Shown here: piece by piece, positions 10,701-64,000 of the stretch | Layout of the letters: each line of letters opens with the position of its first letter | Numbering within the stretch: position 1 is the first letter of the stretch | From: Gonium pectorale | Lineage: Eukaryota > Chlorophyta > Chlorophyceae > Chlamydomonadales > Volvocaceae | Direction of reading: 5' to 3' | DNA length: 64,000 bases | NCBI GenBank assembly: GCA_001584585.1 | Contig: LSYV01000002.1 | Span: 3,390,124-3,454,123, forward strand | Made by a program: the position numbers and the translations under genes | The notes under the pieces: generated by a model | Databases searched by the model: none | The model's input: only the letters and a program-made list of their open reading frames with translations | What the model was told of the DNA's origin: nothing

Positions 10701-12709
10701 GGAGCGCTCTGCAAGGTGGCAGGCTCTCTGCGGCTCCCCGGGCATTGGAAGCAGCATTATCGGGTGGGCTGGCCGCGGCCGCTTGCTGATCTACAGGCGG
10801 GGATGTATCGCCATTACCGTTAGGACCGGCCGGGGCATCCCGCTCCCCACCCCGCCGCCCAGCCGCCTTATAGCGGCCGCCACGGCCGGAGGGCTCCTTA
10901 TCCGCCTCGGTCCGCGGCCTCTTGCTTGTCTCACGCTCCGACCCGCGCTGCTGGCGGTCTTGCTCCCGACCGTTGTCCGGCCGCCGCTTACGCTCCCGGC
11001 CTACTGGGTCCCGGCCCGGGCTATGTTCGCCCTTTCCGACCGGGTCCTGATCGCCCTCTTGGTCCAAAGCGGAGTCCTGCTCGCGCTCGCGGTCCCTGAC
11101 CGGGTCCCGAAGTCGCTGGCGATTGCGGCTTCTCCGGCCGTTCTCCGGGGCATCCTCACCCTCCCGGCCCCGGTCCTTGTCTTGCTCACGATGCCTCTCC
11201 TCGCACGGGAAGGACGCGGACTCAAGGTCGCGCCCATGATCCTGCTGTCGGCGCAGTCCCACTGCAACGCCACCGCTGGCGTCTCGGGGCTTTCCCGCAG
11301 GTATGCCCCGCCCTCGATGGGGCGACACATCGCGGGAGCCCCCCGGTGGGGAGTCAAGGCCTGGGCTCCTGACCGCCCTGTTTCGGTTTGCTTGGCGGGC
11401 TGACGGGACTGGGCTGGCTGTTTGGGCCCCGGCGCTGGCCCCGGCGTCACCACCACCAGCACTGCGGCCGTCGCCACAGGCACCAGGCTGCTGTACGGTG
11501 CGGGTTTCAACGGCAGGTGGCAGGGGCTGCTGCGACGGCTGTGGATGCTGCGCCGGCGCCTCGGGTAGCATGGGCTCAGCTACGATGGGCTCGGCGACAG
11601 GACCGGCCGCAGAGCCAAGTACGCCCCCTACGTCAATGGGCTCCGCCTTGACAGGGGCGAACACCGCAGCATGTGCCGGCTGCTCGAAGCCTCCCGCCGT
11701 GCCTGCACCTGCAGCAACTGCGGCTTCGACGGTTGGCATAAGCGCGGGGTGCTGCTGCTGTTGCTGCAGTTGCTCCTGTTGTTGTTGCTGCTGCTCCTTT
11801 GCTTGGTCCATCTCGAGGCGCGCCGCCAGCAGCCTTTTGGGAAGGTCGAGCGCACGGGGTCAACGATGATCTCTAACATGAATCAAGTATCGATGCAACG
11901 CACCATAAACAGTTAACGCGCAGATCCATATGTGACGTCACGTCTTGCGCGTTCCAGGCACCCCGTGGCGCTTCCTACGGAAACTAGTTTTTTCTGCTCC
12001 CCCCGTTCTCCTTTCCCCGTCTGCTCACCTCTCCCGCAGCTCCTCGTGCACCGCCCGCAGCGTGAGGTACTGCTGTCCGCACTGAGCACGAAGTGCCTCC
12101 AGGCGCGCCTCGGAGTCTGCGACAGCGCGCTCGCGCTGCAGCAGGACCTCCGAGTCCGCCCCAACCTGCAGTAGCAGCGACCCAGATTGATAATGCCGGC
12201 GGCAAAAGGGAGGGGACACTGGCAGCAGAATACACATCGGCGTGACGAGCGCGGATCAGCGCATGCTCAAAGCCACTCCACACAGAGGGGAAACCACGCC
12301 CCACAGCTGTCCACGAATGCCCCGAAGCCGTGCGCTGTGTGTAGCTCTGCAACAGACCGTGCATCGGCTCTCGCCTACGTACCTTGCGCTCGCGTTGCGC
12401 AAGATCATCTGCACGCTGTTGCAGCTCCACCGCCCGCTGGTCCAGCCGCCGCTGCTCGGTCACCAGCTCCCGCTGCTGCAGCCGAACCGCCTCCGCCAGC
12501 TGCAGAAGCTCCAGCTGCTGCTGGGCCAGTAGCGCCTGCTGCTGCGCCACTTGTCGTTGCATCACGGCCATGGCAGATTCGGCCGCGGGCGGCGCGGGCG
12601 GGCCAGGGCCGGGTGCCGGCCCTAGGTAGGTCTCCGGCACCAACGGCGCTCCGGCCACTGCAGGCGCCAAGCCTGCCACCAAGGGGCCCGCCGTCGCCGT
12701 CACCTCCAT
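7780..12709 (-). CDS. low-complexity protein with coiled-coil N-terminus, polyQ and 10-residue repeats (1505 aa)
   Basis: The family is not recognised. Three exons on the minus strand splice in phase: 12709-12383, 12165-12029, 11833-7780. The total is 4518 nt, or 1505 residues. The first two exons encode a Gln/Leu/Glu-rich coiled coil (LLAQQQLELLQLAEAVRLQQ; HEELRER). The third, of 4054 nt, starts with polyQ, passes through RD/ER-rich charged stretches, an EQPV-AAA repeat near 10530-10640 and a decapeptide array at 9885-10216, then basic KRQRRGKRE-type stretches and further polyQ. It ends in a short non-repetitive tail, INLLDEDLARTVDMLRQES. The acceptor of exon 3 (AAAAG at 11834-11838) is poor but is the only site past an in-frame TGA that keeps phase. 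Basic clusters and glutamine tracts would fit a nuclear or RNA-associated protein, but that is inference. The opposite strand is also open for long stretches because of composition only. Confidence 0.6.
8310..8530 (-). repeat. CTG/TTG-rich microsatellite (polyQ tract)
   Basis: On the plus strand, repeated ctg and ttg triplets make CAG/CAA on the coding strand. They encode several Gln runs separated by Pro and Leu in the C-terminal third of the low-complexity protein. Confidence 0.8.
9885..10216 (-). repeat. 30-bp tandem repeat encoding REEAAAAAKA units
   Basis: Eleven copies of a 10-codon unit lie inside exon 3 of the low-complexity gene. The consensus on the coding strand is R-E-E-A-A-A-A-A-K-A, with Thr or Val replacing Ala in some copies and one shortened copy (AVRTREE). 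The copies around 9900-10090 are almost identical in DNA, which points to recent expansion. Confidence 0.85.
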
Positions 12710-13356
12710 CTCCAAGGCTCCTCAGGCACCGAAGGCGTACGTTCGCCGTCCCATCCCCCACCAAGGCAGCGCAACGCCGAGATTTGGCCCGCGGCGCAGC
12801 AGATTTACAAGTGAAGTTTACAGACAATTGACAAGCTCTTAGAGAGTATGCGGAGACCTCTGCAGCCAGAGTGGCCAGGGTACAACGGCTACCAGCAGTG
12901 TTTCCTTTTGATTCTTCAGAGAAATCATGCATGTGCAGAAACATAATCACGGACAAGTCCTTATCGGCGGTGTAGTTTTCGGAGCAGTCGTAAGTTTTGA
13001 CCAAAGCGTCCTCTTCAAGTTCCCGCAACAACAACAACGTAAGCAACCTTGTTGTTTTCAGGGCTCTGACTGTCTATTTCGGAATACGGCACATGGCACA
13101 TCCCAAATAGATGCCCCTTCATATATAAACCAAAGAGATTGCCGCGTGCTGGTTATTCAGTCGCCTAGCTAGAAGCCCCCTTCCCCTGACCATTATTGTT
13201 GTGTCCCGTGTCGGCCGGACTTGATGGCCACCCGATAGGATCAGTATTGCACATCTAGTTGTCCATTCCTAGCCCTAGTTTAGGTAAGGAAAGGCGTGGG
13301 TTCACGCTGGAAATCGGGGCCCGGCCCATCATACCGGCCATACTCGCCACGCCTGC
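12710..13356. promoter_or_regulatory. divergent promoter region, low-complexity gene / VIP1
   Basis: This 647-base spacer separates the start codons of the minus-strand low-complexity gene (12709) and plus-strand VIP1 (13357), so it should hold both promoters. A TATA-like element is annotated separately. No other motif could be called. Confidence 0.5.
13121..13130 (+). promoter_or_regulatory. TATA-like box upstream of VIP1
   Basis: ATATATAAAC stands out from the GC-rich surroundings, 227 bases upstream of the VIP1 ATG. That leaves about 200 bases for a 5' UTR. Assignment is by position only. Confidence 0.45.
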
Positions 13357-16300
13357 GTGCAGGCTAGCGACATCATGAGGCGGCTCTTTAAAGGCCTGTT
13401 CCGAAGCGGTGCGGATGTGCAGCCAAACCTGCCTAAACTCCGGGTGGGTGTGTGCGCCATGGATAAGAAGGCGCGCAGCAAGCCCATGAAGGAGATTCTG
13501 GAGCGCCTCACGGCGTGGGGGGAGTTCGAGGTCGTCATCTTCGGCGACGACGTCATCCTGGACAAGCCCACGGAGGAGTGGCCCCTGGTCGAGTGCCTCC
13601 TGTGCTGGCACTCCGACGGGTTTCCCCTCAAGAAGGCGCAGGAGTACATCCTCAATCGGCGGCCCTTCCTCGTGAACGACGTGTTTATGCAGGCATGCGG
13701 GTTCCGAAGGACAAGCGGGGTCCTGCGTAACGCGTTCGCCATTACAGCGGCAGCGGGAACTTGGGCCTGCTTGCCAGCCCTTCGCCATCAGCGTGTCAGC
13801 ACTGCAACTGTCTTCTGCCGCACACATCGACAGTGCTTGAAACTATGCTTTTTGCACGGATCGGTGCCCTTGCCGTGGCACAGTGATGGGGCCTTCTCCA
13901 TCTCAGTCGTGCTGAGCTCTTGTGCATAACGCGCTGCGCGGTTGGCCGTTCTCGCCACAACGCAGGACGCACTCCTGGACCGCCGACGGGTGTACAAGCT
14001 GCTCGTCGAGAAGAACATCCCCGTTCCGACCCACATCATCGTGGAGAGGAGCGGCCTCCCTGAGGGTGCGTTGTGAGGGCCGGAAGTTGTGATTGGACGG
14101 GGCTTGGGGCTCCTGCCTCGTTACATGGGGCTCCTGCCGCGCTGTTACAGCAGTTCCCAACTAGATGACAGCGGGTTCATCTAAGGGGCAGGGGAGGTTC
14201 AGGAGACGCGCACGGCGAGCTGCTGCATGCCCGCATGCAGCAATTCCCGCGGCCGATGCCTATATGTGCAATCGGACCACTTGTATGCATGGGCTTCGGC
14301 GCCGGGGCCAGAATGCTTCCGAGTGCAGATCAAGCATTTCACTTGGCGTGCGAAGGCTAGTCAGGCCCGTTTTTGGCCCCATACTTGCAGGCGTTACCGA
14401 CCCGCCAGGGTTTATGGAGGACGAGGATTATGTTGAGCTGAACGGCCAGCGCATCTACAAGCCCTTCGTAGAGAAACCCGTCAGCGGAGAGGACCACAAC
14501 ATCTGGGTCTACTATCCGCACTCCATGGTGGGTTCTGCGTGTTACGTAAGCGCCATCGGAAGACTTGCTTTGAAGACTATGTACCCCGCCCCACCAACGC
14601 AAAAGAACGACCCTGGCCCACTCCTTGATGGCTGGCGGACGGACGCGTCCCGTGCTGCATCCCAGCGGTTGCCGGAGCTGAAGGGCACCCCTTCGGTTTG
14701 GCTGAGTGCTGTTTTAGATGGGAAGGGCGTACATGCTTTTTTGAGGAAGTAACGCCGGCTCCCGCGGCGTAGCTGCATCCTTGCTGTGGTGTGCCCTCCA
14801 GGCCGGTGGCCCTGCAAACTCCTCTGCGGGGACCGTTGGGTCTATCAAGCCAGCGGTGACCCTGCATTACCTAGTCGCCCATGACATACTAACCAAGTAG
14901 CCATCTTGGGCAGGGCGCGACGTGATTGCGCAGGTTTGCAGCGCGTTTGGTTGATGTGGTCACCGCGCCTCTGTCGAGGCGTACCTGATGCTCTTGCGCC
15001 GCGCCCGCCTTCCCTCTCCAGGGTGGCGGCGTGAAGTACCTGTTCCGGAAAGTGGACGACAAGGCCTCCAAGTATGATAGCGGCCACCCGGGCCGTGTTC
15101 GCCGCGACGGGTCTTACATCTATGAGGAGTTCCTGCCCACGGGCGGCACGGACGTGAAGGTGTACACCGTGGGGCCGAGGTGAGCCTTGCCGCATGGTTT
15201 CAACCGGATCAAGCGCAATAGGGCCCTGGTGAAGAGTGTCACTCCCACCTACCACGACTGTGACCCCCACCCGGTTGTCTTACACTTCTCACATTCGAGG
15301 CTTCGGCCCACCGGCTCAACATCCCGTGCCCCGGCCCCTGCTTGCCTGCAGGTACGCCCATGCCGAGGCGCGCAAGTCGCCGGTGGTGGACGGCAAGGTT
15401 CTCCGCAGCGCCGACGGCAAGGAGATGCGCTTTCCGGTGCTGCTGAGCCCGCAGGAGAAGGAGATTGCGCGCATGGTGTGCCTGGCTTTTGGCCAAAAGG
15501 TGTGCGGCTTTGACCTGCTGCGCTCCGAGAAGGGCCGCTCTTACGTCTGCGACGTCAATGGCTGGAGCTTTGTGAAGAACAGCAAGAAGTACTATGACGA
15601 CGCGGCCGGCATCCTGCGCTCCATCATCCTCTCCGCGCTGGCGCCGCATCGCCTCAACGTGCAGCCACACCTGCCCACGGCGCCCTCGGGGCTGACGAAC
15701 CCGGAGACCGGCAGCGCGGTCGTGGTGCGTGCGGGTGTTGGGGGCAATGTGCGGGACAGCGTCTGTCTTCAGAATGGAGTGCAATTGCGTCAAGATGGTG
15801 CAGGGTTTGGATACAGGACGGCACATGGCTCACCGCACCGGTATGAGTGCGTTGTCTGGATCCAGTATCTCTTTCCTGTGATAGGTTGCAAAGACGCCGC
15901 GCCTGAATCCGGTAGTCCTGAACCTGACCCCCGCCAGACCTTGTTGAGCTGCGTCCGCGGATGACGCTGTGTTGTTATATCTTAACAAGCTGGGATTGTT
16001 ATAGTATTCGGCCGTGCATCCCACCAACACACCTACCGGCAGAGCGACGACGAGGACGACGACGACGCGCTGGTGCCGGGCATGGACGTGAGCGAGGTGC
16101 GCCACACGGCCAAGCGCAGCCAGAAGGAGGAGTTGCGCTGCGTGCTGGCGGTCGTCCGGCACGGAGGTGAGCGGAGGCGCCCGGCTGCCGTAGGGCAACA
16201 GGGGACATGGAGACAAGGCGGGGGGCGACGGCTTGGGCACAGGGTGGCAAGGTCAAGGCACGGTGTCTCCTGATTCTCTGGGCTGCACGGAACGGCCGAC

Positions 16301-23710: not shown

Positions 23711-26457
23711 TTAGGCAGCCACCTGGCTGAAGCGAGGCGAGTGGCCTACGAAGGGCAGCAAGATCGAGGACGAACAATTTAGCGACAATGCACCGAGGAA
23801 CTTTACCTGGCTGGAGAGTAACCGATATGACTCAGCGCAAGTGTAAACTTTGACCAAACTGAGCCTACCGCCCTGTCATCACTCACCGTACATGTACTCC
23901 TCGAAGCGGCGGACCTCGCCGACCGAGCCGTAGCAGATCTGCGTGCGCTGGTCGCAGTTGTAGATGGGGATGTCCAGAGCCGACACCTGCTTACCGTCGC
24001 AGCTCGACGCACCGCCGGCCTTCTCGACCTGCAGTCAGAAAATACCGGCAGCGCCTCCACGTAAGGCAATGGCCAATACCAACCGGGCCCTCGGAAGCAC
24101 CGGGCTTCATGATCGAAGCAAAAGCTGCTTGGTCGTATCCCAGTCAACAGGCCGAAATTACTGATTTGGCCAGAGCGCCAGCCAAGTCCCATCTAAGCTA
24201 AGTACACAGCCCGCGCTCACCAGCAGGGCCAGGGGGGCAACCTCGAAGAGGATGCGGAGCTTGGCCTTGGTGGTGGGTGAGGTCACGTTGGTGAACACAC
24301 CCTTCTCCTTGACGATGATCTGGAACACGTCGGGCACCATGCCGCCGGTGTAGCGCAGGGTGTACTTCTCGCCCAGGTAGAAGTTGATCAGGCGCTCGTA
24401 GGCGGGGTTGTCGAAGGTGGCGCGGAGGTTGCCGGGGGCGAACATCTTGCCCTCGCCTGCGGAGAGTCGAGAGCGTGGTAGGGCGCAAGAGTTCAGGGTG
24501 GGGCACGGGGAGGGAGTCGGGGCAGGGCGGCAGGGCGCACGGGTTGGAGCGTGCGACGGGCGGCAAAAGGCAGACACAGCCAAGAGCGGGGCGCCTGTAG
24601 TCCCCCGCCAGTCGCAAATGCCTAATGAACGCGCAATCTTGAGCGGGGAAAGCAGCACAGGTTGCCACAGGTAGCGGCTGCTGCTGTCTCTAATGCCTTC
24701 GAAACATCCACAGCCAAGGCAATCCGTGGCGCTACAGGATCGCCGCCCTATTCTTTGCCAGCCTAAAACGTGGCTGTTTACTCACCAATCTCGGTGGTCT
24801 CCTTCACGTGCATCCACTTGCCGTCGTCCATGAGCAGGAACTCGTGGCAGGCGGGGGCGTCCTTGAGGGCAATGCAGAACACCGTGCGGGGGCCGTAGAT
24901 GCCCATGCCGGCGGCGACCTGGTAGGTGGGGACGAGGAAGACGTGCAAGTGAGGTCAGGTGGGTCCAGTCGGGGGTGCAAACTCTTCCAGTAAGGGGAGG
25001 GTCACAGTGGCGAAGCACAGATCAAAGGTCTACATCACCCAGTCCTGCCATTTCTGCCAGTGTGGGGACCCAGCCGATACGGGGATGCTGATCGACAGGT
25101 CCGAGTGAGTTCCTCGAAGCTGGGCATCTTGGGATCCAGTTCAGGCTAATCCCTGCAATATCCCGTAGAATCCAGCGCACGGTCCTGTAGAGTGGTGCCG
25201 TGATACGACACACAGCTCACCGCCGCACTATCACATGTTACGCCCATTGTATCAAGCCTCTACACATCCCGATGTGCATCCAACAAACGTGTCAATGACC
25301 CCACTACGCATACCCGTACAGGCCATACGCAGCATGTGGTCCGTTCGCCCACTAGGCTCACCCCTTGGTCCGCAACCCCACCTGCTCACGGCCGGTGATG
25401 CCGGTCAGCTTGTCGCCGGGCCACACACCGAAGATGGTGCCGACCGAAAAGTTAGTGTCAACGATGGACGAGCCATCCAGGGGGTCGAAAGCGACGCAGA
25501 AGCCCTCCCCGCCCATGTCCACGGGCTCGGGCACCTCCTCCGAGCAGGCCAGCTTGCAGACGTGCTACAGGCCCAAAGAGTTACAACGGGTAACTGTTAG
25601 CAAACCACATGACAAAAGGGAAGCGAAGGAGAATGCTGGCTGTTTATCACAGAAACAGCCAGTGACGGGCGCCCCTGATTGCGATGACAGTGCCCGGCAC
25701 CCTGGTGGGGGATATCCGGACCCCGTGTAATCCCTATCCCAATGCAGCCACCCCCCATACTTCCACCAACCCATAGGCGCATGGCTCACCGAGTACTTCA
25801 GGGCCTCGAACAGGAGCTTGTCCGCAACCATGTCCACGGCCAGCTGCTCATCGCCGAAGCTGTTCACGCAGGCCGTGCCGGCGCACGAAGCAGTGCGGAC
25901 CTACATAATCGATGGCCGAGTATCAAACAAAGGGTCCACTTTGGCGCACGTTACCCATTTTCTGTGTTTCCGATCACCTTGTGGCCGATGGTGCGCACGG
26001 CCTCGGCCATGCTCATCATCAGCTGGCGCAGCTTCGGGTCGGGGGTTGCCTCAACCAGGAACTCGGCCAGGCTGTCGCCGATCTGCGCGGCAAGCAGTAG
26101 TCATGAGCATCCGGCGCGACGCCTGCAAGCAGACGCTCGGGCACTTGCCTTGGCCTGGGTCATGACAGCCGTGCGGCGGGACTGCACACGCGCAGAGCGA
26201 ACAGAGCGCTTCACGCGTGCGGCCACAGCGGCGCCCTTGAAGGCCGAGGCGTTCGCCGAGGCGACGACAACCGGGGCGGTCGCCGCGCGGCCCATCTACG
26301 TGGCAACCAAGAAAGCAATTGTGTTAATGGGTCTGGCATGGAGACTGGTCTGCCGGGTTTCCCTAAGGCCGTTGAGCCTGACCTTGGGGACCGCCACAGC
26401 GCGGCGCTCGCCGGCGACGGCACCGGCAACCTTCTGGCGCATCATGGTAGCGGCCAT
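23711..26457 (-). CDS. SBP1: sedoheptulose-1,7-bisphosphatase, chloroplast precursor (388 aa)
   Basis: Hydrolyses sedoheptulose-1,7-bisphosphate to sedoheptulose-7-phosphate in the regeneration phase of the Calvin-Benson cycle, in the plastid stroma. Nine exons, all in phase: 26457-26383, 26295-26149, 26082-25978, 25900-25790, 25564-25382, 24918-24786, 24456-24221, 24028-23887, 23745-23711; 1167 nt in total, equal to the usual algal length. Exons 1-2 give an Ala/Arg/Val-rich transit peptide. The mature part shows CAGTAC, the CxxxxC pair of thioredoxin-regulated SBPases. It also shows the metal/active-site motif DPLDGSS, and [26 protein letters not shown] and [18 protein letters not shown]-type family residues appear as [18 protein letters not shown], which separates it from fructose bisphosphatase. 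The last exon is only 35 nt and ends in SPRFSQVAA. Intron 2 has a GC donor. Light/redox activation is expected from the cysteine pair. Confidence 0.96.
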
Positions 26458-49852: not shown

Positions 49853-52800
49853 ATGAAACGAGGCGCCGCGAAGGAGCAGCCGGAGCCCGCCGACGCGGCC
49901 GCAGGGGCTGCGGAAGCGGCCGGGGAGGAATCAGCCCCGGCTGCTAAACGGGCAAGGACCTCTAAAGCCAAGTAAGTGCTCTGCAGGCGGTGGATAACAC
50001 GTGAACCGGTCAGCGCCACGCCTTCAGCTGCAGCCTTCTCCAGAGAGGCAGGGGGCACGTGCTCGCATCGCCAGCCATAGGTTTCCCGAGCCCTGCGCCT
50101 CCGGCCCATGCCCTCGCCGTCGTGCACCGCCGGCCGCAGGGCTCCAGCGACGAAGCGGAAGGCCGCGGCTGCGGCTGTGGTCGCCGGCGAGGAATCATCG
50201 GGCGAGGAGCCCGACGAGGCAGCCGAAGCGGCCCAGCCAGCGCGTGCGAAGAAGCCCCGGTGGGTGGGATCATGGCAGAAGCGGCTCGCCTATGGATTGT
50301 GCGCCTTGGCAGTCCCTCGAGCGCACGCCGACCTCGGCGCTTGTCATGGGGCCGTACATGCAAACGGCGTGGAGGGTGCCGCGTGTGTCCGCCCGGCGGA
50401 GGCGCCTTGCCGCGTGCTACCCGACATTATGGGCCACGCCAGAGGCGAACGCGTCCTTTAATGCGGGAAAGCGCTCTTGGGCGCCGGCCGAGCTGGGCGG
50501 ACGCGTTGGCTCGGCTGGCCTTGTGGAATGGGTGGATGGGCTCGAGGGAGCACTTGGCCGAAACCGCCTGTCTTGCCTGGAAGCTGGCGGCGTGAAGGCG
50601 GATGCGCCCGACATGAAGCATTACTACGCTCGCAACCAGGGTTGGGGCGGTGTGCGAACATCCACCCATCTTGCTGCGGTTACGTCGGTGATGTTTGCTT
50701 GCCTTGCAAAGCAGGTCAAAGGCGGCTTCCAAGGCGGGAGGCGGAGCCGCGGCGGCCAAGGCTGGCGAGGAGGCCGAGGAGCCGCAAGCAGCCGAGCCCG
50801 CGAAGCCCAAGGCCAAGCGCGGCAAGAAGGAGCCCGAGCCCGTGCGTAAGTTCCCTGTTACGCTCGGTTACCAATCCGGGTCCACAGGGGTGGCCCTACC
50901 TAGACCCGTGCGCGTGCCTGCGCGCCGCAACCCGCAAGGAGCGTATCCCTGCGGCAGGCAGGCAAGCAGCATGCTCAGAACGTGCCATGTGCGGTAGGGC
51001 CTGTGAGGGGCGAATGGACGCCGCAGCGGGCAGTGTGTGCTCCTCCTGCTTGCCGTTGAAGCCTCGAGCGCCATACCCAGCTCGGCCTTGCCGGTGTAGA
51101 AGACTTGCCTTGCCGGGCCTTGTCGCTACCGCCGCTGCTTCCTGCCTGTTGCGTTGCATCGTCGAGCGCCTCCTGGCCTTGGGCCGCGCCCCCCGTGCCC
51201 AAGTTGCGCCCAGTATGCATCAGTGCATGGTTGAAAGCCGTGAAGTCCTGCACTGGACTACGGCAGGTGCCCCGCCCCGCTATGACTAACGGCCTAGCGC
51301 TGGGATTCTGTAATGCAGTATGGTTCTGCGGTCCCTTGCTGCAGTGCCCTGCTACACGATGGCGATGCGCAAGCCGCCGCCCCCCGAGGGCTCCAAGGCG
51401 CTCAAGATCCTCAGCTGGAATGTGGCGGGCCTGAGGGCGCTGGTCAAGAAGGTGCGCAGCGTGCGGCCTCAAGAGCCGACCCACGGGTCTCCCTCGCGGC
51501 GCCGCTGCAACTGCTGCTGCGAACGGTCCGTAATGCCTTACGTTTTCTGCCGCCCTGCCCCATTCCTGTGGCCCTCTATCCGTGTCTCTTAACATGAATA
51601 TGTTCATGTATGTACTCGTCTTCGCGTCTGCCGCCCTCAACTCCACCGCCTTCGCCTTACCCGGCGCAGACGCCGGACTCATTGTCCAAGCTGGTTGATC
51701 GGGAGGGCGTGGACGTCGTGTGTCTGCAAGAACACAAGCTGCAGGGCGACCATACAGCAGAGTTGGAAAAGTCGCTGGGGCTGCAGGTTCGTGCGGGCGG
51801 CCTTGGCGGGGCTTTTAGGTTGGGAAAAGTGGGCGGGTTGGGGACACCTGCCATCCGCTGCAGAGACTGTGAACTTCGAGGTGAGGTGTCAGCGCTTGGC
51901 AGGCCGCATCAGTAAGGCTTGCTTGGGAGACCAGGGCGTGCCATAAACGCTTGCCGCATGCCCATGCCGCCTTGGCCTACGGATGTCCGCCTTTCCGCCC
52001 TTTTCCCCCTTTCTTGCAATCCCCCATGCCCTCCGCTTTCGCTTACCCTTTTCCCGTCCCCCCCATTCCCCCGCTCCCCGTCTCCGCCCTGACCAGGGCT
52101 GGTCTCACCACTGGGCCTGCTCCACCGCCAAGCTCGGCTACTCCGGCGTCTCCGTCCACACCCGCACGCCGCCCCTCTCCGTCTCGGTCGGCCTGGGCGG
52201 CCCCGATGGCTCCGGCCCCGAGCCGGACCCCGAGCACGAGGCCGAGGGCCGCGTGGTGACGGTGGAGCTGCCGGACCTGTTTGTGGTGTGCGCCTACGTG
52301 CCGAACAGCGGGGAGGGGCTCAAGCGGCTGGACTACCGGATCAAGAGGTGGGACGGAGCGTTCGCGGCGTACATCACCGGCCTGGAGGCGCGCGGAAAGC
52401 CGGTGCGGTTGGGCAGTGGGGGTGCGGGTCGGGAGGCCGCTGGGAGGCGGGAGGGCAAGGCGGGTGGGGGGCGGGAAAGCGATGCGGGACAAGGGATGGG
52501 GGGTAAGGAGCGGCGAGGGGTGAGAGGAAGGAGTGCCTGCTGGCTGGTGGGTTGGGTGGGTAATAAAGAAGGGGAAACGGGTCGGGTGGGTTGGGTGGGT
52601 AATAAAGAAAGGGAAACGGGTCGGGTGGGGTGGGTGGGTAGTACAGAAGGGGAAATGGGTCGGGTTGAGGTGGGTGGGATGGCATGCCGGTGCGCCCCTG
52701 CACAGGGGTTGGCCTGTTGGTGCCCTGAAAGACGGTCGATGTAGAACACACGGGCCGCTGCGCGTGACGCGAGCCGGCGATAGGCGGGCCAATCTGGAAA

Positions 52801-54014
52801 GCCAGAATTGTCAAGATGTGTGGGCGTAGCCGCCGACGGCTGGCCAGGGGGCGCCCTGCCGGTCCTGGTCCCATGCCGCTTATAGCTGCCCCTCGGCCGC
52901 GTTGCTTCCTTGCGTCCTGGACCCGCTCCCCGGATCCATTTGCCCCGAGCTAACGGCCGCTGCTGCAACCGCGTGGCGATGCCCGGGCCAATCGCCGGCC
53001 TTGCCGTCGCAGGTGGTGCTGACGGGCGACCTCAACTGCGCGCACAAGGAGATCGACATCCACGCGCCCAAAACTAACCTCAAGTCCGCAGGATTCACGC
53101 CGGTACGCGTGTCTTGGCGATGACTTGAAGTGTCCCAGCCTGCATTCACGGGGGCGGGACACGACCGTCGCAGTGTACATTGTATGTATGCAGCCTGGTA
53201 TGCAGCCTGGTACCAAAGTCAATACTCAGTCGTCAGCAGCAAGTAAGTGTATGGCGGATATGCGTGCGCGGTGGACACTCCCCTCACCGGTGATGCTGTG
53301 GTGCACGCATCGACTCTGATTGACACCCCTGCCGTCCAGCCCAACCCGCCAGCCATAGCCCTTGCAACACCGCTCTCCGCCCCAATCACTTTGGTGTGCG
53401 CCTCCCTGCTCCGCTTCGCAGGAGGAGCGCGAGAGCTTCAGCCGGCTGCTGCTTGGGGAGGTGGGGCTGGTGGACACCTTCCGCACCCTGTTTCCCGACA
53501 CCGTCGCCTACACCTACTTCACCAAGCGCTTCAACTGCCGCGAGAAGAATAAGGTGCGAGGGGTGCGGGCACGCCCTGGGACCGGGTGCAGGTTCGGGCG
53601 TCGGGGTGTGGACGTGTGGTGTATGGTGGCTTGGGAGTTGAGACCACGGAGTTGTGCAGCTGCCAGCGACAGTTCCGTGAATTCTGAATCAGCGTTCGTA
53701 TGGGCGGTTCCCCAGCGAATGAGGCACTGGGGAGGGAGTCGGCTGCGGAGTTCAGTTGAGGAGGCTGTGGGCACAGTTTTCGACATAGGTCGGTGCTTGA
53801 CATGGCGCGCCGCGAATTTCTCCGGCCTCAGGGATGGCGACTGGACTACTTTCTGACCTCCTCCACCATGATGCCGGAGGCGGCGGCGCCGCAGCGCAAG
53901 GCGCCGGCGCCGCCCAGCAAGTGGCGGGTGTACGACAGCTGGATTCTGCAGGACGTGTACGGGCCGGACCACCTGCCGCTGGGGCTCACGCTCGTACGGA
54001 ACGACGATGACTGA
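49853..54014 (+). CDS. AP endonuclease, exonuclease III / APE1 family (434 aa)
   Basis: Cuts DNA 5' of abasic sites in base-excision repair. Nine exons in phase: 49853-49971, 50140-50259, 50715-50845, 51345-51451, 51670-51786, 52097-52402, 53013-53102, 53422-53553, 53832-54014 (1305 nt). The first three exons encode a Lys/Arg/Ala/Glu-rich extension ([30 protein letters not shown]) that could act as a nuclear localisation or DNA-binding tail, as in APE1. The catalytic EEP domain follows with all hallmark blocks: [15 protein letters not shown] (Asn), [10 protein letters not shown] (metal-binding Glu), [12 protein letters not shown] (Tyr), [15 protein letters not shown] (Asp/Asn), RRIDYFL-like WRLDYFLTS and the terminal [12 protein letters not shown] (Asp-His). 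Intron 52403-53012 holds a 39-bp minisatellite. No TGTAA was found within about 450 bases downstream. Nuclear versus plastid targeting cannot be decided from the sequence. Confidence 0.95.
52554..52670 (+). repeat. 39-bp G-rich minisatellite in an intron of the AP endonuclease gene
   Basis: Three tandem copies of a 39-bp unit beginning gggtgggtaataaagaa. The third copy has diverged (agtacag in place of aataaag). It lies wholly inside intron 52403-53012. Confidence 0.8.
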
Positions 54015-55280: not shown

Positions 55281-58200
55281 TTAAACACTTGTCAGGCGGG
55301 ACCGCTCAAACAGGTCGGCCGCCATCGTCAGGAACGACGACTGCTCCGTCATGGCCCGCGGCCGCCCAGAGCCCTCCGCGCCCCACTCCTCGGGCGCCTG
55401 GGGCCGGGAGCGGCGCGCCAGCTCGGCCCGTGCGCGGCCCTCCTCCGCCAAGGCCCGGGCGCGCAGCTGACCCGGCGTCAGCGCCGCGCCTGTGTCCATT
55501 CCGAGCGCGCCCAGCAGAGGCCCACCAGCGGCAGCCTCCGTCCTGCGGAACATCTCGCCAGGCACGGCGTTGGTCCGCCAGCCTGCGCCGCCGCCGCCAC
55601 CGTCTTGACCGTTGCTGTACTCACTCTCTCGGTGTGAGTGAGTCGGGACGAACGGCGCCCCATCCCGCTCCCGCTCCCTCTCCCGCGCCTGCTGATGCTG
55701 ATGCTGGCCCTGACCGGCTTCCTCCAAGTCACTCGTCGTACCGTACGGCTGTCGGTCGCCGTACATTGGTGTGGATGGCTGGGTCACGCCATATACGTGC
55801 TGGCTGCCAGCGCGGCTGCCGACGCCGTCGCCGACAGAGCCCGCGGAGCCGCCCGGACCCACCGGACCCGACGCCGACAAGAAGGGCATGCGAGGCTGGG
55901 GGGGCGGCTCCAAGGAGTACCGCTGAGTCGATGGGCTAGGCGCGCTGGGCGCTTGGTGCGGCCGGATGTGCTGCGCCGTGAAGGATGCGACCGTCGTCAG
56001 CTCCTGCTCGGCGGCAGCATCGTAGGCGACCCGCGGGTCGGCGTACGGCCGCAGAACCGGCTGATCGTGTTGGAGTTGGTGTTGGGGGTGCGCTTGTCGC
56101 AACTGCTGTCGGGATTGCTCATCCCAGAGCCACTGCCCGGCGGAGGATGCGTCGCCGCCGCCGCCGCCAGGAAGCGGCGCTCCCTCGTCCGTCAGGCTGG
56201 AGAGTGAAGGGCTCATGGGGCGAGCGTACGGCTCGTACGGCGTTTGTACGGCAGACGGCGACTGCATGTCGTGGGCCACAGACGCATGGCGGGTGCTGCT
56301 GCGGTAGGCGTCTTGCCCGGCCCACGCTGCGGGCGCCCTCGGCGAAGCCACATCGCCTGAGGGGTAGCCTTGCACGGAGGGCGGCCGCGGCGTCTGCTGC
56401 TGCTGTGGCTGCGACGACACCGTCCTCCCTAGGCGGCTGCTCCCGAGCAGCTGCGCGTGGGGCGAGAGGGGCGCTTCGCGCTGCGAGGCCTCGGCGGCGA
56501 TGGAGGCGTCCCGGCCGTCCCGGCCGGCACTAGCCGAGGACGACCCGGAGCCGTTGGAGCCGCGCGGTGTTTCCGGGGCCTTCAGGTCTACCTGATAGGG
56601 TCCGGGAGGACATGGGCAGGGCCAGGCGCAAGGAGCCTTTAAGGGGGGGGTACGTGGTTGGACGGTGTGCCGCGCCAACAAAGCGATAATTGGAAACCGC
56701 GCATTGGGGGTGCAATCTGCAGCACGAGTAAGCAAATACGGGCAATCAGCCCTCGATACGTGCCTTCGGCTGGCCTCCATGCCCGTGTCGCACCAGTTGG
56801 TCTACAGTTGCGCAAACGACGGCCTGCACCGCCCACCGTGCAGACCGCACACCCTACTCCCAAAGCTCCCCTCCCGCCTCACGCCCCGCACGCCATCCGG
56901 CCCACCTGTCGCTGGGCGCTCGGTGGCTGCCCCACCCCCACCCCCGCCGTGTGCACGTGCGCGAGCCGCGGCGCGAAGGTATGCAGCCGCACCGCCGCGT
57001 CAGTGGCCATCGTCGCCAGGGAGCGCAGCTTGTCACTCAGGGTCAGCACACTCGACTCCCGGGGCCGGCCAAAGCCGCCGCCGCCGCCGCCGACGCGGCC
57101 GTCTCCCTCGGTTTCTCTTTTTTCCTCGCCGCTGCCGCCGCTAGCCATGCCGGTGCGGGGGCCGCGGCCGCTGGCGCCATCACCGCTGTTGCTGGCACGG
57201 GTAGCTGACGTCATGGCGACGCTCTCATGGCGCAGGCTGGGGCTACTGGGTGCCTTGGGGTGGCGAGCTTCCGCCCCCGTGGCGTCGCGATCGTCGCCGC
57301 TGCCGGCCCTCCGACCGTAGCCCATCGACGGGAGCGGCAGGCGGCCCAGGGAGCTCTGCTGAAGCCTTGCAGCCTGCGCCTGCGCCGCCCCGGCGCCGCC
57401 ACCGCTGCCGCCACCATTGCCGCCACGGCCGCCGCCGGCCCCGTCACCGTAGTCAGAGTCATCGCTTCGGCCCTCCTCGCCGCCGGATCCGTCGTACAGC
57501 GGTTGGCTGACGCCGACGCCCAGTGCCGACGCCACCTCCCAGGCCAGCTCGGGAGTCAGGGAGCTGAACAGCACGTCGGACAGAAGAGGCTGTGCGCGCG
57601 TCTCTCCGCTGCCGGGTCCCGAGCCATGCCTGCTCGACTGCGCGGCCCTGTAGTTCGCAGTGGCGGCGGAGGCGGCGCGCAGTGGGCTGGCGGGCGCGGA
57701 CAGCGCGGCGTGACCGGCCGCCATGCCGTACCCACCGGCGCCGTCGTACGGTGGCGTGCCCGGCGCCGAAGCCGCCGGGGCCGCCGTCATCCCGTCGCCG
57801 TGCTCGGCCAGCGGGTTGTCGAAGGTGACAAAGCGATGGCTGCCAGAAAGGGGGGAGTGGAAGGACGGGGCGCGGTGCGCAGCGCCGGGGTAGCCCTGGG
57901 CGGCGGACACCGAGAGGAAGGTGTGCCCACCGCGGGCCCGCCCGCCGACCGCGTCCGACTCTGCCCCGGGACCCCCGGCGCGGAGGCTGCCCATCCGCGA
58001 CGCCAGCCGCGGCGGAGACGAGACCGCGCGTTCCCGCTCCAAAAGATAGTACTCACGGTACTGCCGGTCGAGCTCGTCCTCCTCCGTGCTCCGTGCACCG
58101 CTGTAGTCGCCGTACGGCGCCGGTGGCTGACCCGGACTGCCGTGCAAACCGGCGGAGGAGTGGTAGGGGCTGCCGCCGGCGCCGGCGCGCATGGAGAAGG

Positions 58201-61200
58201 AGCCGGCGCCGACTGAGGAGGCGCGGCCGGGCGACGGGGAGCGGACCGGCAGCGGCGCCGCCGGGGGCGAGGCGTGGGAGGCGAGGCGGCCCAGGGCAGC
58301 GCGTGTGGTCTCCTCCACGTGTCGCCCGATTTCGGTGATGTCTGAGATGCCCGACAGGCTGCTGCGGTGCGGCAGCGGGAGCGACAGCATGGGTAGCGGT
58401 TCGATGGCCGCCGCGGCAGCAGCGGCGGCGGCGGCGGCAGCGACGGCGGCCTCGGAGAGCCGCACGCTGGTAACGCTCGCGTCGCCGGCGACGCTGACGC
58501 CGCCAGCCACGGGGCCGTCGAAGGAACCCACTGGCGAGCCGGCCCTGGCGATCTCCCTCGACTGCTGCTGCTCCCCCGGCACGCCTCCGGCCTTGGCGCC
58601 GGCGCCACCGCTGCCCGCACCGCCGGCACCGGCTCCGGTGCTGCCACCCACGCCGACGCCGCCGGCGCCGCCGCTGGCGATGCTGGCCCCTGCGTTCCTG
58701 GACGCGGCTGCCATGTCCACGATCATGCTGTTGACTTGGCGGAGCAGCTCCTGCACGTAGCTCTCGTCCGTCATATCCACGGCCGACGTCGACCCGTCGT
58801 CGCCGTCGCCACCGCCGTCCTCCCCCTGCTGCTGTTGCCGCTTTTTCTTCTGCTGTTGCTTCGGCTTGGAGCGCCGCCGGTCGCCGCTGCCCTTGCGGCT
58901 CCGTCGGCCACCGCTGTTGCCGCCCTTGCGCCGGTCGCGTCCCCGGCTCCGGTCGACGCTGCTGCCGCGCGACGAGCCGCTGTCGCTGCCGCTGCCGGTC
59001 TCATCGCTGCTGCCAGCCGTGTCGCTACCGCTGCTGCTCCTGTCGCTGCTGCGGCTGCGGCTGCGGCTGCTCCGACGGCGTTGGCGGCGGCCGTCACGGC
59101 GGCGACCGCTCGTGCTCTGGCGCCGGCTGGCGGCTCGGCTGCGGCCATCGGCATCCTCCTGATGCCGGCGACGGTTGCCACCGCTTGGCGCTGGGTTGAC
59201 CGCCGAGTCGGCATCAGCTCCGGCACTACCGCCGGCGCCGCTGCCTTGTTGAGGCTGTGGAACGCTCGGACGCATACTCGAGGCTACCGGCGGGGCTGCT
59301 GATCTGATGGGCGCCGGTGGCGGCGGCGGCGCCGGTGGCGGAAGAGTGGGTGGGGGTGGCGGTGCCGCAGCCTGGGCAGGCCTAGCGGCAGGGATCGGGC
59401 TGATGCGGAGGAGGAGGCGGTGGCGGAGGCGGAGGCGCCGGCACAAGCGCCCGCAGTGTCGGCTGCGGCGGCTGTGGCGGCTGCGGCTGCTGTTGTGGCA
59501 TTGTCTGCTGGGAGCTCGGCGGCTGTGCCGGTGGGGACTGCCCATAGGCGTGTCCACTCTCGGTCACGACTCCTGCGCCGTACATTGTGCCGTACCCGGT
59601 CCCTGAGGTGCTGGCGAGCCCCTCCTGGCGGCGCTGCGGCTGCTGGTCTTCCCACTGGACTGACCGTGCGGCCTGCACGCTGCGTGGCCGTACGGGCGTG
59701 ATCTCATTGTACGGCGGTACGCCGTGCTCTGCACTGCCGTACTGCTCGTCATCCGGCAGGGCCATGACGACGGCGCGGCGCGGCGTAGAGGGCTGCATGC
59801 GCGGGGGCGGGACGGACTCCGGTGGCGGCGGGCACGGCGCGGGCGGCGGCGGCGCCAGGGGCGGTGCCGGCAGCCGAGGCGAGCCGCTCCCGCCAGGCGC
59901 GGACATCTCACGGCGATCCCTCCGCGGCTCGCCGGCCTCTGGTTGCCGCCGAACCTGCGGCGAGCGAGGCGGTTCCCTCTCCCGCTCCCGCTCCCGCTGA
60001 GCATGGTAGCTGCTGGAAGGCTGCTGCGAGCGCGGCGGCGACGGCGGCGGCTGGTCCGCAACGGTCCGGCGGTGCTGCCGGTGCTGTCGCTGCTGCAGCT
60101 CCCGCATCACCTGCTCGTGGCGGCGGTACGGCGCCGCCTCCGACTGGCGCGAGTGCCAGTCCCGTGGGTCGAGCGAGGACCCGCCCTCGAGGGTGCTACT
60201 GCCGTCGTACAGGCCGCACATGCTGGCGGTTTCGGCGCCGCTGCCGGTCGTGCCGTCGTCAAGGTCCGCCTGGCACTTTTTATTTGATACCATCTGTGGC
60301 CGGCTTGGCGCGCGGCCCTCTGGTATCAGCATCCCGTACGCCAGACCGCCGCCGCCGCCGTACGGGTACGGATCGGCAGCGGGCCCGCCGTACGGGCCGT
60401 ACGGACTGTCTTGCAGCTGATGGTGGTTGATCCCGTTGGCTGGCCGCTCGTACAGATTGTTGTAAAACATGAGCCTGCCGTCGACTTTGTCCACTCGGGA
60501 CCCGGTGCCCCCGGCATCACCGTAGCGGACTTCGGGGCCGCCGCAGCACGGACCCGCAAAGCAGCCGCCGCCACCGCCACCGCCACCACCATCGCCACTG
60601 GGCACAGGGCGTCCGGTGGGCTGGCGTAAGGGCAGCGGCGGCGAAGGCGGCAGCGGGCCCATCCCGGCGCGCTCGGGACCCCACGGCCGACCCACAGGTC
60701 CACGGGGCTCGAGCTCCGCTGGGCCGTAGAGACCCTGCCCGCCTGCGCCGATCTCGAAGTCCCTGCCGCGGCTGGTGGGGCCGGGACTCATGTCTCTGCC
60801 GCCGTAGCCGCCATAGCCGCCTCCGCTGCCGCCATCCATCACGTTGCCGATGTAGGCATACGTGTCGCCGGAGGGCGGAGCGTCTTGGAAGCCGCGCGGG
60901 GGGCGGGCGACCGCGGCGGGTAGTCGGGGCTCGGTCCGTGCTGTGGGTAGGGGTAACCCTCGTCCTCAGAGTCCTTGGGCGCGCGGTCGTAGTGCCGGCT
61001 GCGGCTGCGGAGCGGGCTGGCGCCGCCGCCCGGGGCGGCGGGCCCGGGCCCATACCAGGGACGCACGCCCTCGCCGTCGTCCTCGCCGCCGTAGGCCCTA
61101 GCGCCGCTGCGGTATTCTCGGCTGGGGCTGGAGCCGCCTCCTCGGTAGGGTGGCGGCGACGGTGGGGCGTGCTCGCGCCCCAGCGAGCGCTGCGGGCCGC

Positions 61201-64000
61201 CGTTGCCGTAAGCGCCGGGCTTGCCACCAACCGGCGCGCGGCCGGCCTGGATGCCCTTTTCGTGTTGGCTCCATTGGTAGGCCAGGGCCGGATCCTGTCG
61301 GCGTTCCAGTTGCGCGGCGGGAGCGGAAGGCGCGCGTGTGAGGCGAGGGCAAGCACTCGTGCACGCGCTGGCTGCGGTGGGGATACATAGAATGTGTGTG
61401 AAAAGTGTTACGCATGCGCGCGTAGCCGTACTGCTGTAGGTGTTCCCCCTGTCCGTACCGTACGCTCGCGTCCTGCCGTGCGTTGTACCTGATAATGCCC
61501 GTACGGCGGCGGCTGCTCCTCGATCCGCTCCTGCAGCCTCTCCTGGACCCATTGCTCCCGTCGCCCACGGCCGCACCAGTTCATACAGCTCGCGGCCATG
61601 ACTATCAGGCCCAGGACGATCGCCCCTCCGACGCTGCCAACGATAATAGCGATGACCTGGCGGTCGGTAAGGCCACCTGGGTTGGCGCTGGCACGGCCGA
61701 CGGGCGCTGGTGGCGGTGGCGACGGCGGGGTCGGGGAGGCGGGCGGCAGGCGCGCTGACTGGGTGTCTCCAGAACGTCCTGAAGGTGGGCGGGGCGAGGG
61801 TTGGCAGGGCGCGTGGGAGGGGCCGGGCGCGAGGTCAGATCAGCGGCGTGGATTGAGCCAGGGTCGGGGCTCGGGAGAACCGTAATGTGATGTAATGGTC
61901 AATATAAAGTTTAAGGTATAAAAAGCGGATGGAGGCGGACTTGCGATGGAGGTTCGTGTGTTCTGTCTGATCACATAGAAGGCCTTGTGTGTGGGGAATG
62001 TCCACAAGGAAGCGAGGGGGCCCATGCCGGGGCATGGACCAAGCGGAGAGATCGGAGGATATCCAAGAGCCAGAAGAAAAGGCGGTGTTGGCAGGGAGCT
62101 CCCAGCTGGGAGCGGACCCCAGCTGCGGCCAGACCGCACGGAGTCGACCGCGCGACGCGCGGGCTCTGATACTCTTGGGCCGCACCTGTGTCGGGTCCGG
62201 GAGGGGACAGCGGATGCGGAGGGGCAGACGGGGTCTCTGGAGTGCTGGCGGGGGAAGCGTCAGGCGGCGACGGCTCCGCTGGCGGCAGGCCTCCGCGGCC
62301 GAGTGCGTCCCTTACGGGCCCCGGCTGCGGCGGGCTGTTGCTGCCGGCTGGCTGGTCCGTAGGATGGGTGGCAGGGCCCGGCGGTCGGGGTGGTGGCTGT
62401 GGCGCCGGCTGCGACGGTGCGGGTGCAGGGTCCGGCGGGCTTGGTGGCCGGGGCGGAACCGGCGCGGGCGGGACTGGCTTCCTAGGAGCAGGTTGCGGCG
62501 GTGTGGAAGGCGAAGGCGGTTTAGGCGATGGTGGGCTGAATGGCCGCGGGCTGGGCAAAGGGGGTGGCGGGCTTGGCGGCCCGGGGCTTGAGGTTGGGGA
62601 CGGCGGCACGGGGCTGGGCGGCCGAGGGGCTGGCGGCGTCGGTGAGGGAGGCTGAGGGCTAGGCGGGGGGGACGGTGGGGGAGGGAGGCTCAGGTTGGTC
62701 GTGGGGCGCGTTTACGGGCAGCACGGGAGGGGGTCGAGGGCGTGGGCGGCGAACGGAGTAGGCGGCGCCGGGGACGGAGGCCGAGGACTGGGCGGAGGCG
62801 GAGGCGGAGACGCCGGGGATGGAGGCCGAGGGCTGGGCGGCAGCGGCACGGGAGGGGACTGTTGTGCAGGAGTGGAGCTGGGGGGTGGCGCGCTCAAGGA
62901 GCTGGGTGGCGTAGTCTGCGGGCTAGGCTGCTGCTGCGTGGGTGGCGGCTGAGGGATGGGAGATGAAGGCTGAGATGGCGCCTGAACGGGCGGCTGCCCC
63001 TGCGGTGGCGGCGCTGGAGATGGGCTGTTGGGGGTCGGGAGCCGGGCCGGCGGCTCCGGTGAGGACTGGGCTGGGCCCTCGGGGCGCGGAGGGGTAGCGT
63101 CTGGCTGCGGCGACGGCTGTCCCGAAGATGGCGGGAGGAGAGGCGGCCGGCCCGGCAGCTCAGACAGGCTCGGGTGTGGCACTGGCGAAGACCCTGGCGC
63201 TAGTGGCGGCCGGACCTCTGGGACAGGTGTAGGAGCTGGGGTGCTTGGAGCCCACGGAGCTGGAGGCGTTGGAGCAGCCGGAGGCGGTTTACTTGGAGGA
63301 GGCCATGGGAGTGGACTCGTCGGTGGGCTAGGCGGCTGGTATTGAGGTGGGCTTGGCGGAAGGCTCGGGGCTGGTGATGGCGGGCTTGGTACCGGGGGCC
63401 TAGGACGCGGCGGCGGGCGCGGCGGGCGCGGCGAGGGTGGAGGAGCTGGCGACGGCGATAGCTTGACCGAACACACCTGCGCCCCTGGCGGGCCATCCGG
63501 GCAGGGGCGCACAGTGTAAGAGCCAGTTTGCGGGGCGCCGTACGATGGTGGCACATACATCAAAGGCATCGATGGTGCGCTAGTGACGGGTAGACCACCG
63601 CAGCCGTAACATGGTATAAAGGCCGGTTTGTTCGGTTGAGCTGGAAAAGGTGGTTTGCCTGATGCACTAGGATTTAGAGCTGAGTTTTCAGAGATGTCAG
63701 TATAGTTGTTGCCTAACAAAGTGTCGTTGCGACTGGCATTGTTTGGGCTGGCGCTCTCCGGCAGGAAAGGAGAGTTAAATGTCCCCGGGGAAGGATATGG
63801 CGGCGCCGGCGAGGGCGGGTAGGGAGGCGCGGGCGACGGCGGCTCGGGGCTGGGCGGCGCCGGCGAGGGCGGGTAGGGAGGCGCGGGCGACGGCGGCTCG
63901 GGGCTGGGCGGCGCCGGCGAGGGCGGGTAGGGAGGCGCGGGCGACGGCGGCTCGGGGCTGGGCGGCGGCGGCGAGGGCGGGTAGGGAGGCGCGGGCGACG
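55281..64000 (-). CDS. hydroxyproline-rich membrane protein with a long disordered cytoplasmic tail (5' part outside the window)
   Basis: Not a named gene to me. The minus-strand reading enters at 64000. The exon ending at 62716 has 18-residue PSPAPPYPP-type repeats, a Cys-containing island (CYGCGGLP; VRPCPDGPPGAQVC) and Asn-glycosylation sites (NNAS, NDT, NNYT), then SP/PP repeats typical of wall HRGPs. It continues at 62658-62186 after a probable 57-nt intron. Exon 61778-61489 gives one membrane span (61575-61656) and a basic anchor (CGRGRREQW). Exon 61294 onward begins DPALAYQWSQHEK, followed by Gly/Tyr/Pro-rich cytoplasmic sequence with PPPY motifs. Exon 59371-56906 carries an Arg/Ser-rich stretch and Gln/Lys tracts, and 56591-55281 ends in ERSRLTSV. 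The frame changes near 60897-60904, and again at 59372-59444 unless a 73-nt intron is accepted. Orientation (wall outside, tail inside) follows from the HRGP and the positive anchor. A wall-to-cytoplasm linker or sensor is inference. Confidence 0.7.
61575..61656 (-). other. predicted transmembrane segment of the HRGP membrane protein
   Basis: About 25 hydrophobic residues (VIAIIVGSVGGAIVLGLIVM and on) lie between an SP/PP-rich side and an Arg-rich side. The positive-inside rule places the C-terminal part in the cytoplasm. Confidence 0.85.
61870..61960 (+). other. AT-rich island with TATA-like motif in an intron of the HRGP gene
   Basis: In the intron 61779-62185, a short AT-rich patch contains ggtataaaaagc (plus strand, about 61915-61926) and other A/T runs. 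The surroundings are strongly GC-rich. It could be an antisense promoter, an intron branch region or chance. Confidence 0.35.
63799..64000 (-). repeat. 54-bp tandem repeat encoding PSPAPPYPPSPAPPSPEP
   Basis: About 3.7 nearly identical copies of a 54-bp (18-codon) unit run off the right end of the window. They form part of the Pro-rich ectodomain. Confidence 0.9.

What the first reader, a model, noticed from the sequence alone, without database searches (positions are those of the whole stretch)
55281..64000. A wall-type hydroxyproline-rich ectodomain fused to a membrane span and a cytoplasmic tail of more than 1500 residues
HRGPs and pherophorins are normally secreted. Here a phase-consistent junction (62186 to 61778) joins SP/PP repeats to a clear membrane helix. 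It is followed by a very long tail rich in PPPY motifs, Tyr/Gly repeats and an Arg/Ser stretch. The architecture suggests a physical link or sensor between the cell wall and the cytoplasm, with PPxY sites that WW-domain proteins could bind. I know no described family with this layout.
Basis: partly seen in the sequence, partly recalled or inferred. Interest (0 to 1): 0.75.

Follow-up and report, generated by a model that had tools for sequence, protein, structure and literature searches.

The report
Algal surface protein with long tail
A green-algal gene most likely makes a proline-rich surface protein that crosses the membrane once and carries a very long, floppy inner tail with short conserved patches; that general build is already known in algae and plants, but no known protein family was found in this tail.

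Summary
The observation mostly holds. On the minus strand a hydroxyproline-rich frame (63998-62187, 43% Pro) is joined by the best-scoring phase-consistent intron (62185-61779) to an exon with its own Pro stalk, a clear membrane helix (61659-61573) and then a ~1,926-residue tail ending at 55281. The tail's largest exon is real protein: two database proteins of unnamed origin (E 1e-28 and 1.7e-27) align along it as one open frame whose ends match my splice sites, with conserved islands between poorly conserved linkers.

The N-terminus lies in 18,469 N beyond the window. The tail has two PPxY (0.72 expected); the Arg/Ser run is absent from the relatives. The layout has precedents: Chlamydomonas MAR1 and SAG1, plant class I formins and PERKs.

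Best reading: a single-pass HRGP whose disordered tail is a docking scaffold, acting as wall/matrix tether or adhesion receptor. Sensor role and WW binding are inference. No relative containing the membrane helix was found, so the HRGP-helix-tail link rests on anatomy. New variant of a known kind.

The parts
62186..64000 (-). HRGP ectodomain frame (SP/PPSP repeats), open at its 5' end into an N stretch; spacer with 3 N-glycosylation sequons (63740-63705) and 4 Cys (63611-63471)
   Evidence: 43% Pro, 27 PPSP, sequons and Cys; 54-bp tandem repeat of 3.7 copies at 63799-64000; N beyond 64000
62712..62714 (-). in-frame TAA in the HRGP frame, probably from two compensating one-base slips (inference: the neighbouring frame is Pro-rich there)
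   Evidence: no good intron removes it
61779..62185 (-). predicted intron HRGP to TM exon, CAG|GTGCGG ... CCACCTTCAG|G, 407 nt
   Evidence: phase kept, best score 8.0 vs 5.1, GC 0.62
61489..61778 (-). TM exon: Pro stalk, membrane helix 61659-61573, basic/amphipathic juxtamembrane segment ending PPPYGHYQ
61295..61488 (-). predicted intron TM exon to tail exon, 194 nt, weak own splice score but phase 0; its acceptor matches the start of homology in P0001/P0002
   Evidence: (score about -0.9)
56906..61294 (-). large tail exon; one-base frame breaks near 60.90 kb and 59.39 kb
   Evidence: P0001/P0002 align along it as one open frame; frames; GC3
60258..60305 (-). conserved island (SRPQMVSNKKCQADLD)
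   Evidence: masked tblastn E 0.007
58709..58771 (-). conserved island (TDESYVQELLRQVNSMIVDMA)
   Evidence: masked tblastn E 0.001; helix in the low-confidence model
56963..58351 (-). conserved block with the islands GISDITEIGRHVEETTRAALGRLASHASP, LSGSHRFVTFDNPLA, PLLSDVLFSSLTPELAWEVASALG, TLSDKLRSLATMATDAAVRLHTFAPRL
   Evidence: masked tblastn E 2.2e-19; alignment
56592..56905 (-). predicted last intron, donor CAG|GTGGGC; acceptor is one of several candidates
   Evidence: the relatives' frames also run out just after a Q-V at this place
55281..56591 (-). last exon, 436 residues and stop; no homologue seen
   Evidence: open frame, high GC3 in most of it

Best explanation
One gene of a close relative of Chlamydomonas for a single-pass cell-surface protein. 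Shown: an HRGP frame; a membrane helix with a Pro stalk in the same exon; a long tail whose largest exon is conserved in two relatives. Inferred: the HRGP rod stands in the glycoprotein wall or matrix, the helix anchors it in the plasma membrane, and the ~1,900-residue tail is an intrinsically disordered scaffold whose short conserved islands (some helix-forming) dock cytoplasmic partners, so that the protein tethers the membrane to wall, matrix or a partner cell and can pass on contact or tension. Tether or adhesion is likelier than a dedicated integrity sensor.
For: HRGP composition. Phase-keeping, best-scoring junction. Pro stalk and helix in one exon without a start codon. Two relatives at E 1e-28 and 1.7e-27, aligned over the tail exon with 408 of 1063 and 413 of 1056 identical residues, matching raw window DNA on both sides of the 59.4 kb break, and beginning and ending where the predicted splice sites lie. 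Conservation in islands, 72% disorder-promoting residues in the tail. Same layout in MAR1 and in three other frames of this genome (L014, L016, L019).
Against: No transcript evidence. Searches with the juxtamembrane tail and with the TM exon found no relative, and the relatives found cover only the tail exon, so conservation of the HRGP-helix-tail link is not shown. Three frame faults in the window copy. N-terminus unseen. Net charge is +1 on both sides of the helix within 15 residues, so charge does not fix the topology. No TGTAA polyadenylation signal (motif recalled) within 1.8 kb after the stop. The disorder model is from two sequences, mean pLDDT 33.
Confidence: 0.5

Rival explanations
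1. A gamete or ciliary adhesion receptor of the MAR1/SAG1 sort: the HRGP rod recognises a partner cell and the tail serves trafficking or fusion signalling, rather than contact with the cell's own wall.
For: MAR1 has PPSPX repeats, one membrane span and a long tail and is lineage-specific; SAG1 is an HRGP with an integral membrane C-terminal piece that moves to the cilium.
Against: MAR1 is 1018 residues in the review, while this tail alone has about 1,900. No sequence comparison with MAR1 or SAG1 was made: neither sequence was at hand. No expression data.
Confidence: 0.25
2. Two genes: a secreted HRGP ending near 62.7 or 62.0 kb, and a separate gene for the helix and tail.
For: In-frame stop at 62714-62712 in the HRGP part; no transcript data; no relative spans the junction.
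Against: The HRGP frame goes on in the same frame after that stop to the donor at 62186. The TM exon has its own HRGP-like stalk, no Met before the helix, and the best acceptor at its start.
Confidence: 0.12
3. A decaying copy (pseudogene) whose intact relatives encode the working protein.
For: Three faults in about 4 kb of coding sequence, while the relatives are open through the tail exon.
Against: The two tail breaks cancel, and the frame between them is open for over 500 codons with high GC3 and a conserved island. The 60.9 kb break lies at a C run. The TM exon occurs once in the genome. The 59.4 kb break could also be an intron (59665 to 59399 or 59381), though the relatives read through there.
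Confidence: 0.1
4. PPxY motifs as a platform for WW-domain proteins.
For: 2 PPPY, reached by 2 of 300 shuffles; a PPPY at a similar offset (47 vs 55 residues into the exon) in both relatives.
Against: Only 2 PPxY in all, reached by 49 of 300 shuffles; the alignment does not superpose the shared one; it is not among the strongest islands.
Confidence: 0.1

Closest known systems
MAR1 of Chlamydomonas reinhardtii (minus-gamete adhesion protein)
   Same: Single-pass, proline-rich PPSPX ectodomain, long cytoplasmic tail, lineage-specific (review PMC8777248, passages)
   Different: 1018 residues, gamete-specific; here over 2,500 residues are visible and expression is unknown; sequences not compared
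SAG1 / SAG1-C65 of Chlamydomonas reinhardtii (plus agglutinin)
   Same: HRGP repeats plus an integral membrane C-terminal polypeptide (PMC4362204, passages)
   Different: Cleaved into two polypeptides; called multi-pass in PMC8777248; sequences not compared
Plant class I formins (AtFH1, AtFH3, AtFH5)
   Same: Pro-rich HRGP-like ectodomain, membrane span, cytoplasmic part that acts on the cell cortex (PMC9232206, passages)
   Different: Defined by FH1/FH2; no Pfam family in the tail pieces here
PERK receptor kinases
   Same: Extensin-like N-terminal part and plasma-membrane location (PMC4769139, passages)
   Different: Kinase domain, absent here; PERKs were not found in C. reinhardtii or V. carteri in that survey
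Yeast Wsc1 and Mid2 wall sensors
   Same: One membrane span and an O-glycosylated rod-like ectodomain (PMC6704257, passages): works-like comparison only
   Different: Ser/Thr-rich rather than HRGP ectodomain; shorter tails (recalled); no homology tested

Membership tests
HRGP (volvocine type) | Long SP/PPSPX-type proline-rich stretches | tested here: met
   43% Pro, 27 PPSP, 51 SP in 604 codons
HRGP (volvocine type) | Secretion signal peptide | not testable with these tools
   N-terminus lies in 18,469 N beyond the window
Pherophorin | Pherophorin domain | tested here: inconclusive
   No Pfam family at E up to 1 in the two visible HRGP frames; the N-terminal part is not visible
Single-pass membrane protein | One hydrophobic helix, none in the tail | tested here: met
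   Hydropathy 2.75 in the TM exon; the tail has one segment at 1.41 only, an Ala-rich stretch, below the 1.6 usual cut
MAR1 | Sequence homology to MAR1 | not tested
   No MAR1 sequence at hand; Pinello et al. 2021 (PMC8794015) not held
MAR1 | Proline-rich PPSPX ectodomain, one span, long tail | tested here: met
   the link rests on a predicted intron
SAG1 | Sequence homology and proteolytic split into agglutinin and membrane piece | not tested
   No SAG1 sequence at hand
Class I formin | FH2 domain in the tail | tested here: not met
   0 Pfam families at E up to 1 in the four tail frames and in P0001/P0002
PERK | Protein kinase domain in the tail | tested here: not met
   Same scans
WW-ligand scaffold | PPxY motifs above chance and conserved | tested here: inconclusive
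   2 PPxY (49 of 300 shuffles reach it); both PPPY (2 of 300); similar offset in relatives but not aligned

The most novel reading that the evidence does not exclude
A lineage-specific wall- or matrix-integrity sensor: a new family in which an HRGP rod built into the algal wall is joined through the membrane to a nearly 2,000-residue disordered hub, whose conserved islands recruit the still unknown signalling partners of the algal wall-repair response.
Probability: 0.15. Interest if true: 0.75.

Novelty: new variant of a known kind. Interest (0 to 1): 0.42.

Why it matters
Chlamydomonas reacts to wall removal, but the study of that response reports no CrRLK1L or WAK homologues there and gives its wall sensors only as candidates (passages of PMC6704257). 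A single-pass HRGP with a conserved scaffold tail is a concrete candidate for a link between wall and cytoplasm, and the conserved islands give defined peptides to use as bait for partners. If it is an adhesion receptor instead, it is a much larger protein of MAR1-like layout.

Tried and rejected
Protein searches: joined tail, residues 40-500: 7,983 candidates scored, none at 1e-3. TM-exon frame: 362 candidates, none at E 1. Residues 250-880 of the 894-aa frame: 2 hits among 7,978 candidates scored. Prokaryote and viral DNA collections: 20 and 14 stretches matched a pattern, none a relative, as expected for an alga.

Intron readings of the frame faults: none good for the HRGP stop or the 60.9 kb break; a possible one for the 59.4 kb break, disfavoured because both relatives read through. 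PPxY richness rejected. Formin and PERK membership rejected. Sub-threshold Pfam matches of the TM-exon frame (best E 0.019, below the curated cut-off) were taken as chance.

Unmasked tblastn of P0001/P0002 gives many low-complexity matches elsewhere in the window, down to E 1.2e-7 outside this gene and 1.1e-8 in the HRGP part; I rely on the masked run. The match to the first part of the tail exon (61297-60905) appears only unmasked, at E 3.9e-6 and 3.4e-7, no better than those, so the frame ahead of the 60.9 kb break rests on the visible WSQ..KG.QAG similarity.

Base rate of the layout: not obtained. In 93,631 held bases a scan for Pro stalk plus helix found the target and one frame at 16066 (-), by eye a chance frame opposite another gene. 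Of 24 own-genome matches to the TM exon at E up to 10, 8 including the target have stalk and helix in one frame near the match; 3 of the 23 others (L014, L016, L019) also have 281 or more residues after the helix; several of the rest look like chance frames. They were picked by similarity, so this is no rate.

AlphaFold of P0001 with two sequences: mean pLDDT 33, no fold search made.

Full report
Setting. The window is G000:C2:3390124-3454123 of a 128.9-Mb genome in 352 contigs. An SBPase exon at 25361-25564 is 60 of 63 residues identical to PDB 7b2o over the aligned part; the C. reinhardtii SBPase gene is Cre03.g185550 (one passage of PMC11961124). This is a close relative of Chlamydomonas, probably volvocine; the species was not identified.

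Ectodomain. The minus-strand frame 63998-62187 is 43% Pro and 14% Ser with 27 PPSP, begins in a 54-bp tandem repeat of 3.7 copies and has a spacer with three N-glycosylation sequons and four Cys. The 18,469 bases after the window read N, a gap or a withheld stretch, so start and signal peptide are unknown. An in-frame TAA lies at 62714-62712. There the neighbouring frame reads RPRPRPPPVLPVNAPHDQPEPPSPTVPP, which suggests two compensating one-base slips; no good intron removes the stop.

Membrane exon. Exon 61778-61489 carries PPASPTPPSPPPPAP, has no Met before the helix and a TGA upstream, so it should be internal. The helix reaches 2.75 on the hydropathy scale, above the maximum of 2.38 in 2000 shuffles. 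Net charge within 15 residues is +1 on each side, so the HRGP-outside topology is inferred from the ectodomain, not from charge.

Tail. Joined across introns of 194 and 314 nt and two one-base frame changes it has 1,926 residues. Two proteins match: P0001 (1116 aa, E 1e-28) and P0002 (1104 aa, E 1.7e-27), the only two at E up to 1 among 7,978 candidates scored. They are 89% identical to each other, and 408 of 1063 and 413 of 1056 aligned residues are identical to the joined tail. Without the join, masked tblastn on the raw window finds 58351-56963 (E 2.2e-19) and 58771-58709 (E 0.001) in one frame and 60305-60258 (E 0.007) in another, on either side of the 59.4 kb break, where the relatives have one open frame. 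Their homology begins at EPTKGYHWSQ just after a Q and ends soon after SQV, as expected from my acceptor before 61294 (DPALAYQWSQ) and donor after 56906 (RQ, then V if read on). The splice score of the 61489|61294 intron by itself is poor (about -0.9). Conservation sits in islands, the strongest in SVLTLSDKLRSLATMATDAAVRLHTFAPRL and GETRAQPLLSDVLFSSLTPELAWEVASALG (25 of 30 residues identical in all three). The last exon has no homologue here, and its acceptor is one of several candidates.

No known domain. Pfam reports 0 families at E up to 1 for the four tail frames and for both relatives, the PDB sequences 0 for P0001 at E up to 1. The AlphaFold model of P0001 from two sequences has mean pLDDT 33, with helices at three of the islands: compatible with disorder, weak as evidence.

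PPxY: 2 against 0.72 (49 of 300 shuffles reach it); PPPY: 2 against 0.10 (2 of 300); GY/YG: 31 against 17.0 (0 of 300); tandem RS/SR: 7 against 0.87 (0 of 300). In the tail exon of the relatives PPxY is 2 and 1, tandem RS/SR 0 and 0, and Tyr in the first 330 residues 23 and 22 against 23 here. The Tyr-rich composition is kept; the Arg/Ser run is not.

How it may work. Rod in wall or matrix, one span, disordered inner hub with docking islands: inference from anatomy. Precedents for the layout are MAR1, SAG1, class I formins and PERKs. In this genome L014, L016 and L019 also join a Pro-rich stalk, a helix and a long tail; L014 and L019 show a kinase-like stretch by eye, which Pfam did not report at E up to 0.1. 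In C. reinhardtii TRP-family proteins with HRGP domains have been proposed to sense wall stress like Wsc1 and Mid2 (passages of PMC6704257).

Verdict. A real gene with a conserved, unclassified tail; the layout as such is not new. That HRGP, helix and tail form one protein is likely, not proven. My paper searches (open-licence papers only; listings, and passages of the papers named above) showed no description of this protein, but none of them could search by sequence.

Noticed in passing
L006:1620-2183 (-), C2:3474119-3474682, beyond the N stretch: Cys-rich, extracellular-looking open frame on the same strand, without a Pfam family; could be an N-terminal part of this gene or another gene.
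   Followed up: partly
window 63475-63775 (-): The HRGP spacer has GC at third positions down to 0.38 (150-base slice around 63625), far below most of the gene; unexplained.
   Followed up: no
window 7783-11859 (-): 1359-residue open frame; part of the stretch shows Gly/Glu/Arg repeats in an overlapping frame. Not identified.
   Followed up: no
L014, L016, L019 (C7, C9, C7 of the same genome): Frames of 829-953 residues with Pro-rich stalk, helix and long tail; L014 and L019 look like paralogues with a kinase-like stretch by eye.
   Followed up: partly
window 13288-16270 (+) and 51314-54011 (+): By eye, exons of a PPIP5K/VIP1-like gene and of an exonuclease III/APE1-like gene; no family search made on them.
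   Followed up: no
window 25361-25564 (-): SBPase exon, 60 of 63 residues identical to 7b2o.
   Followed up: yes
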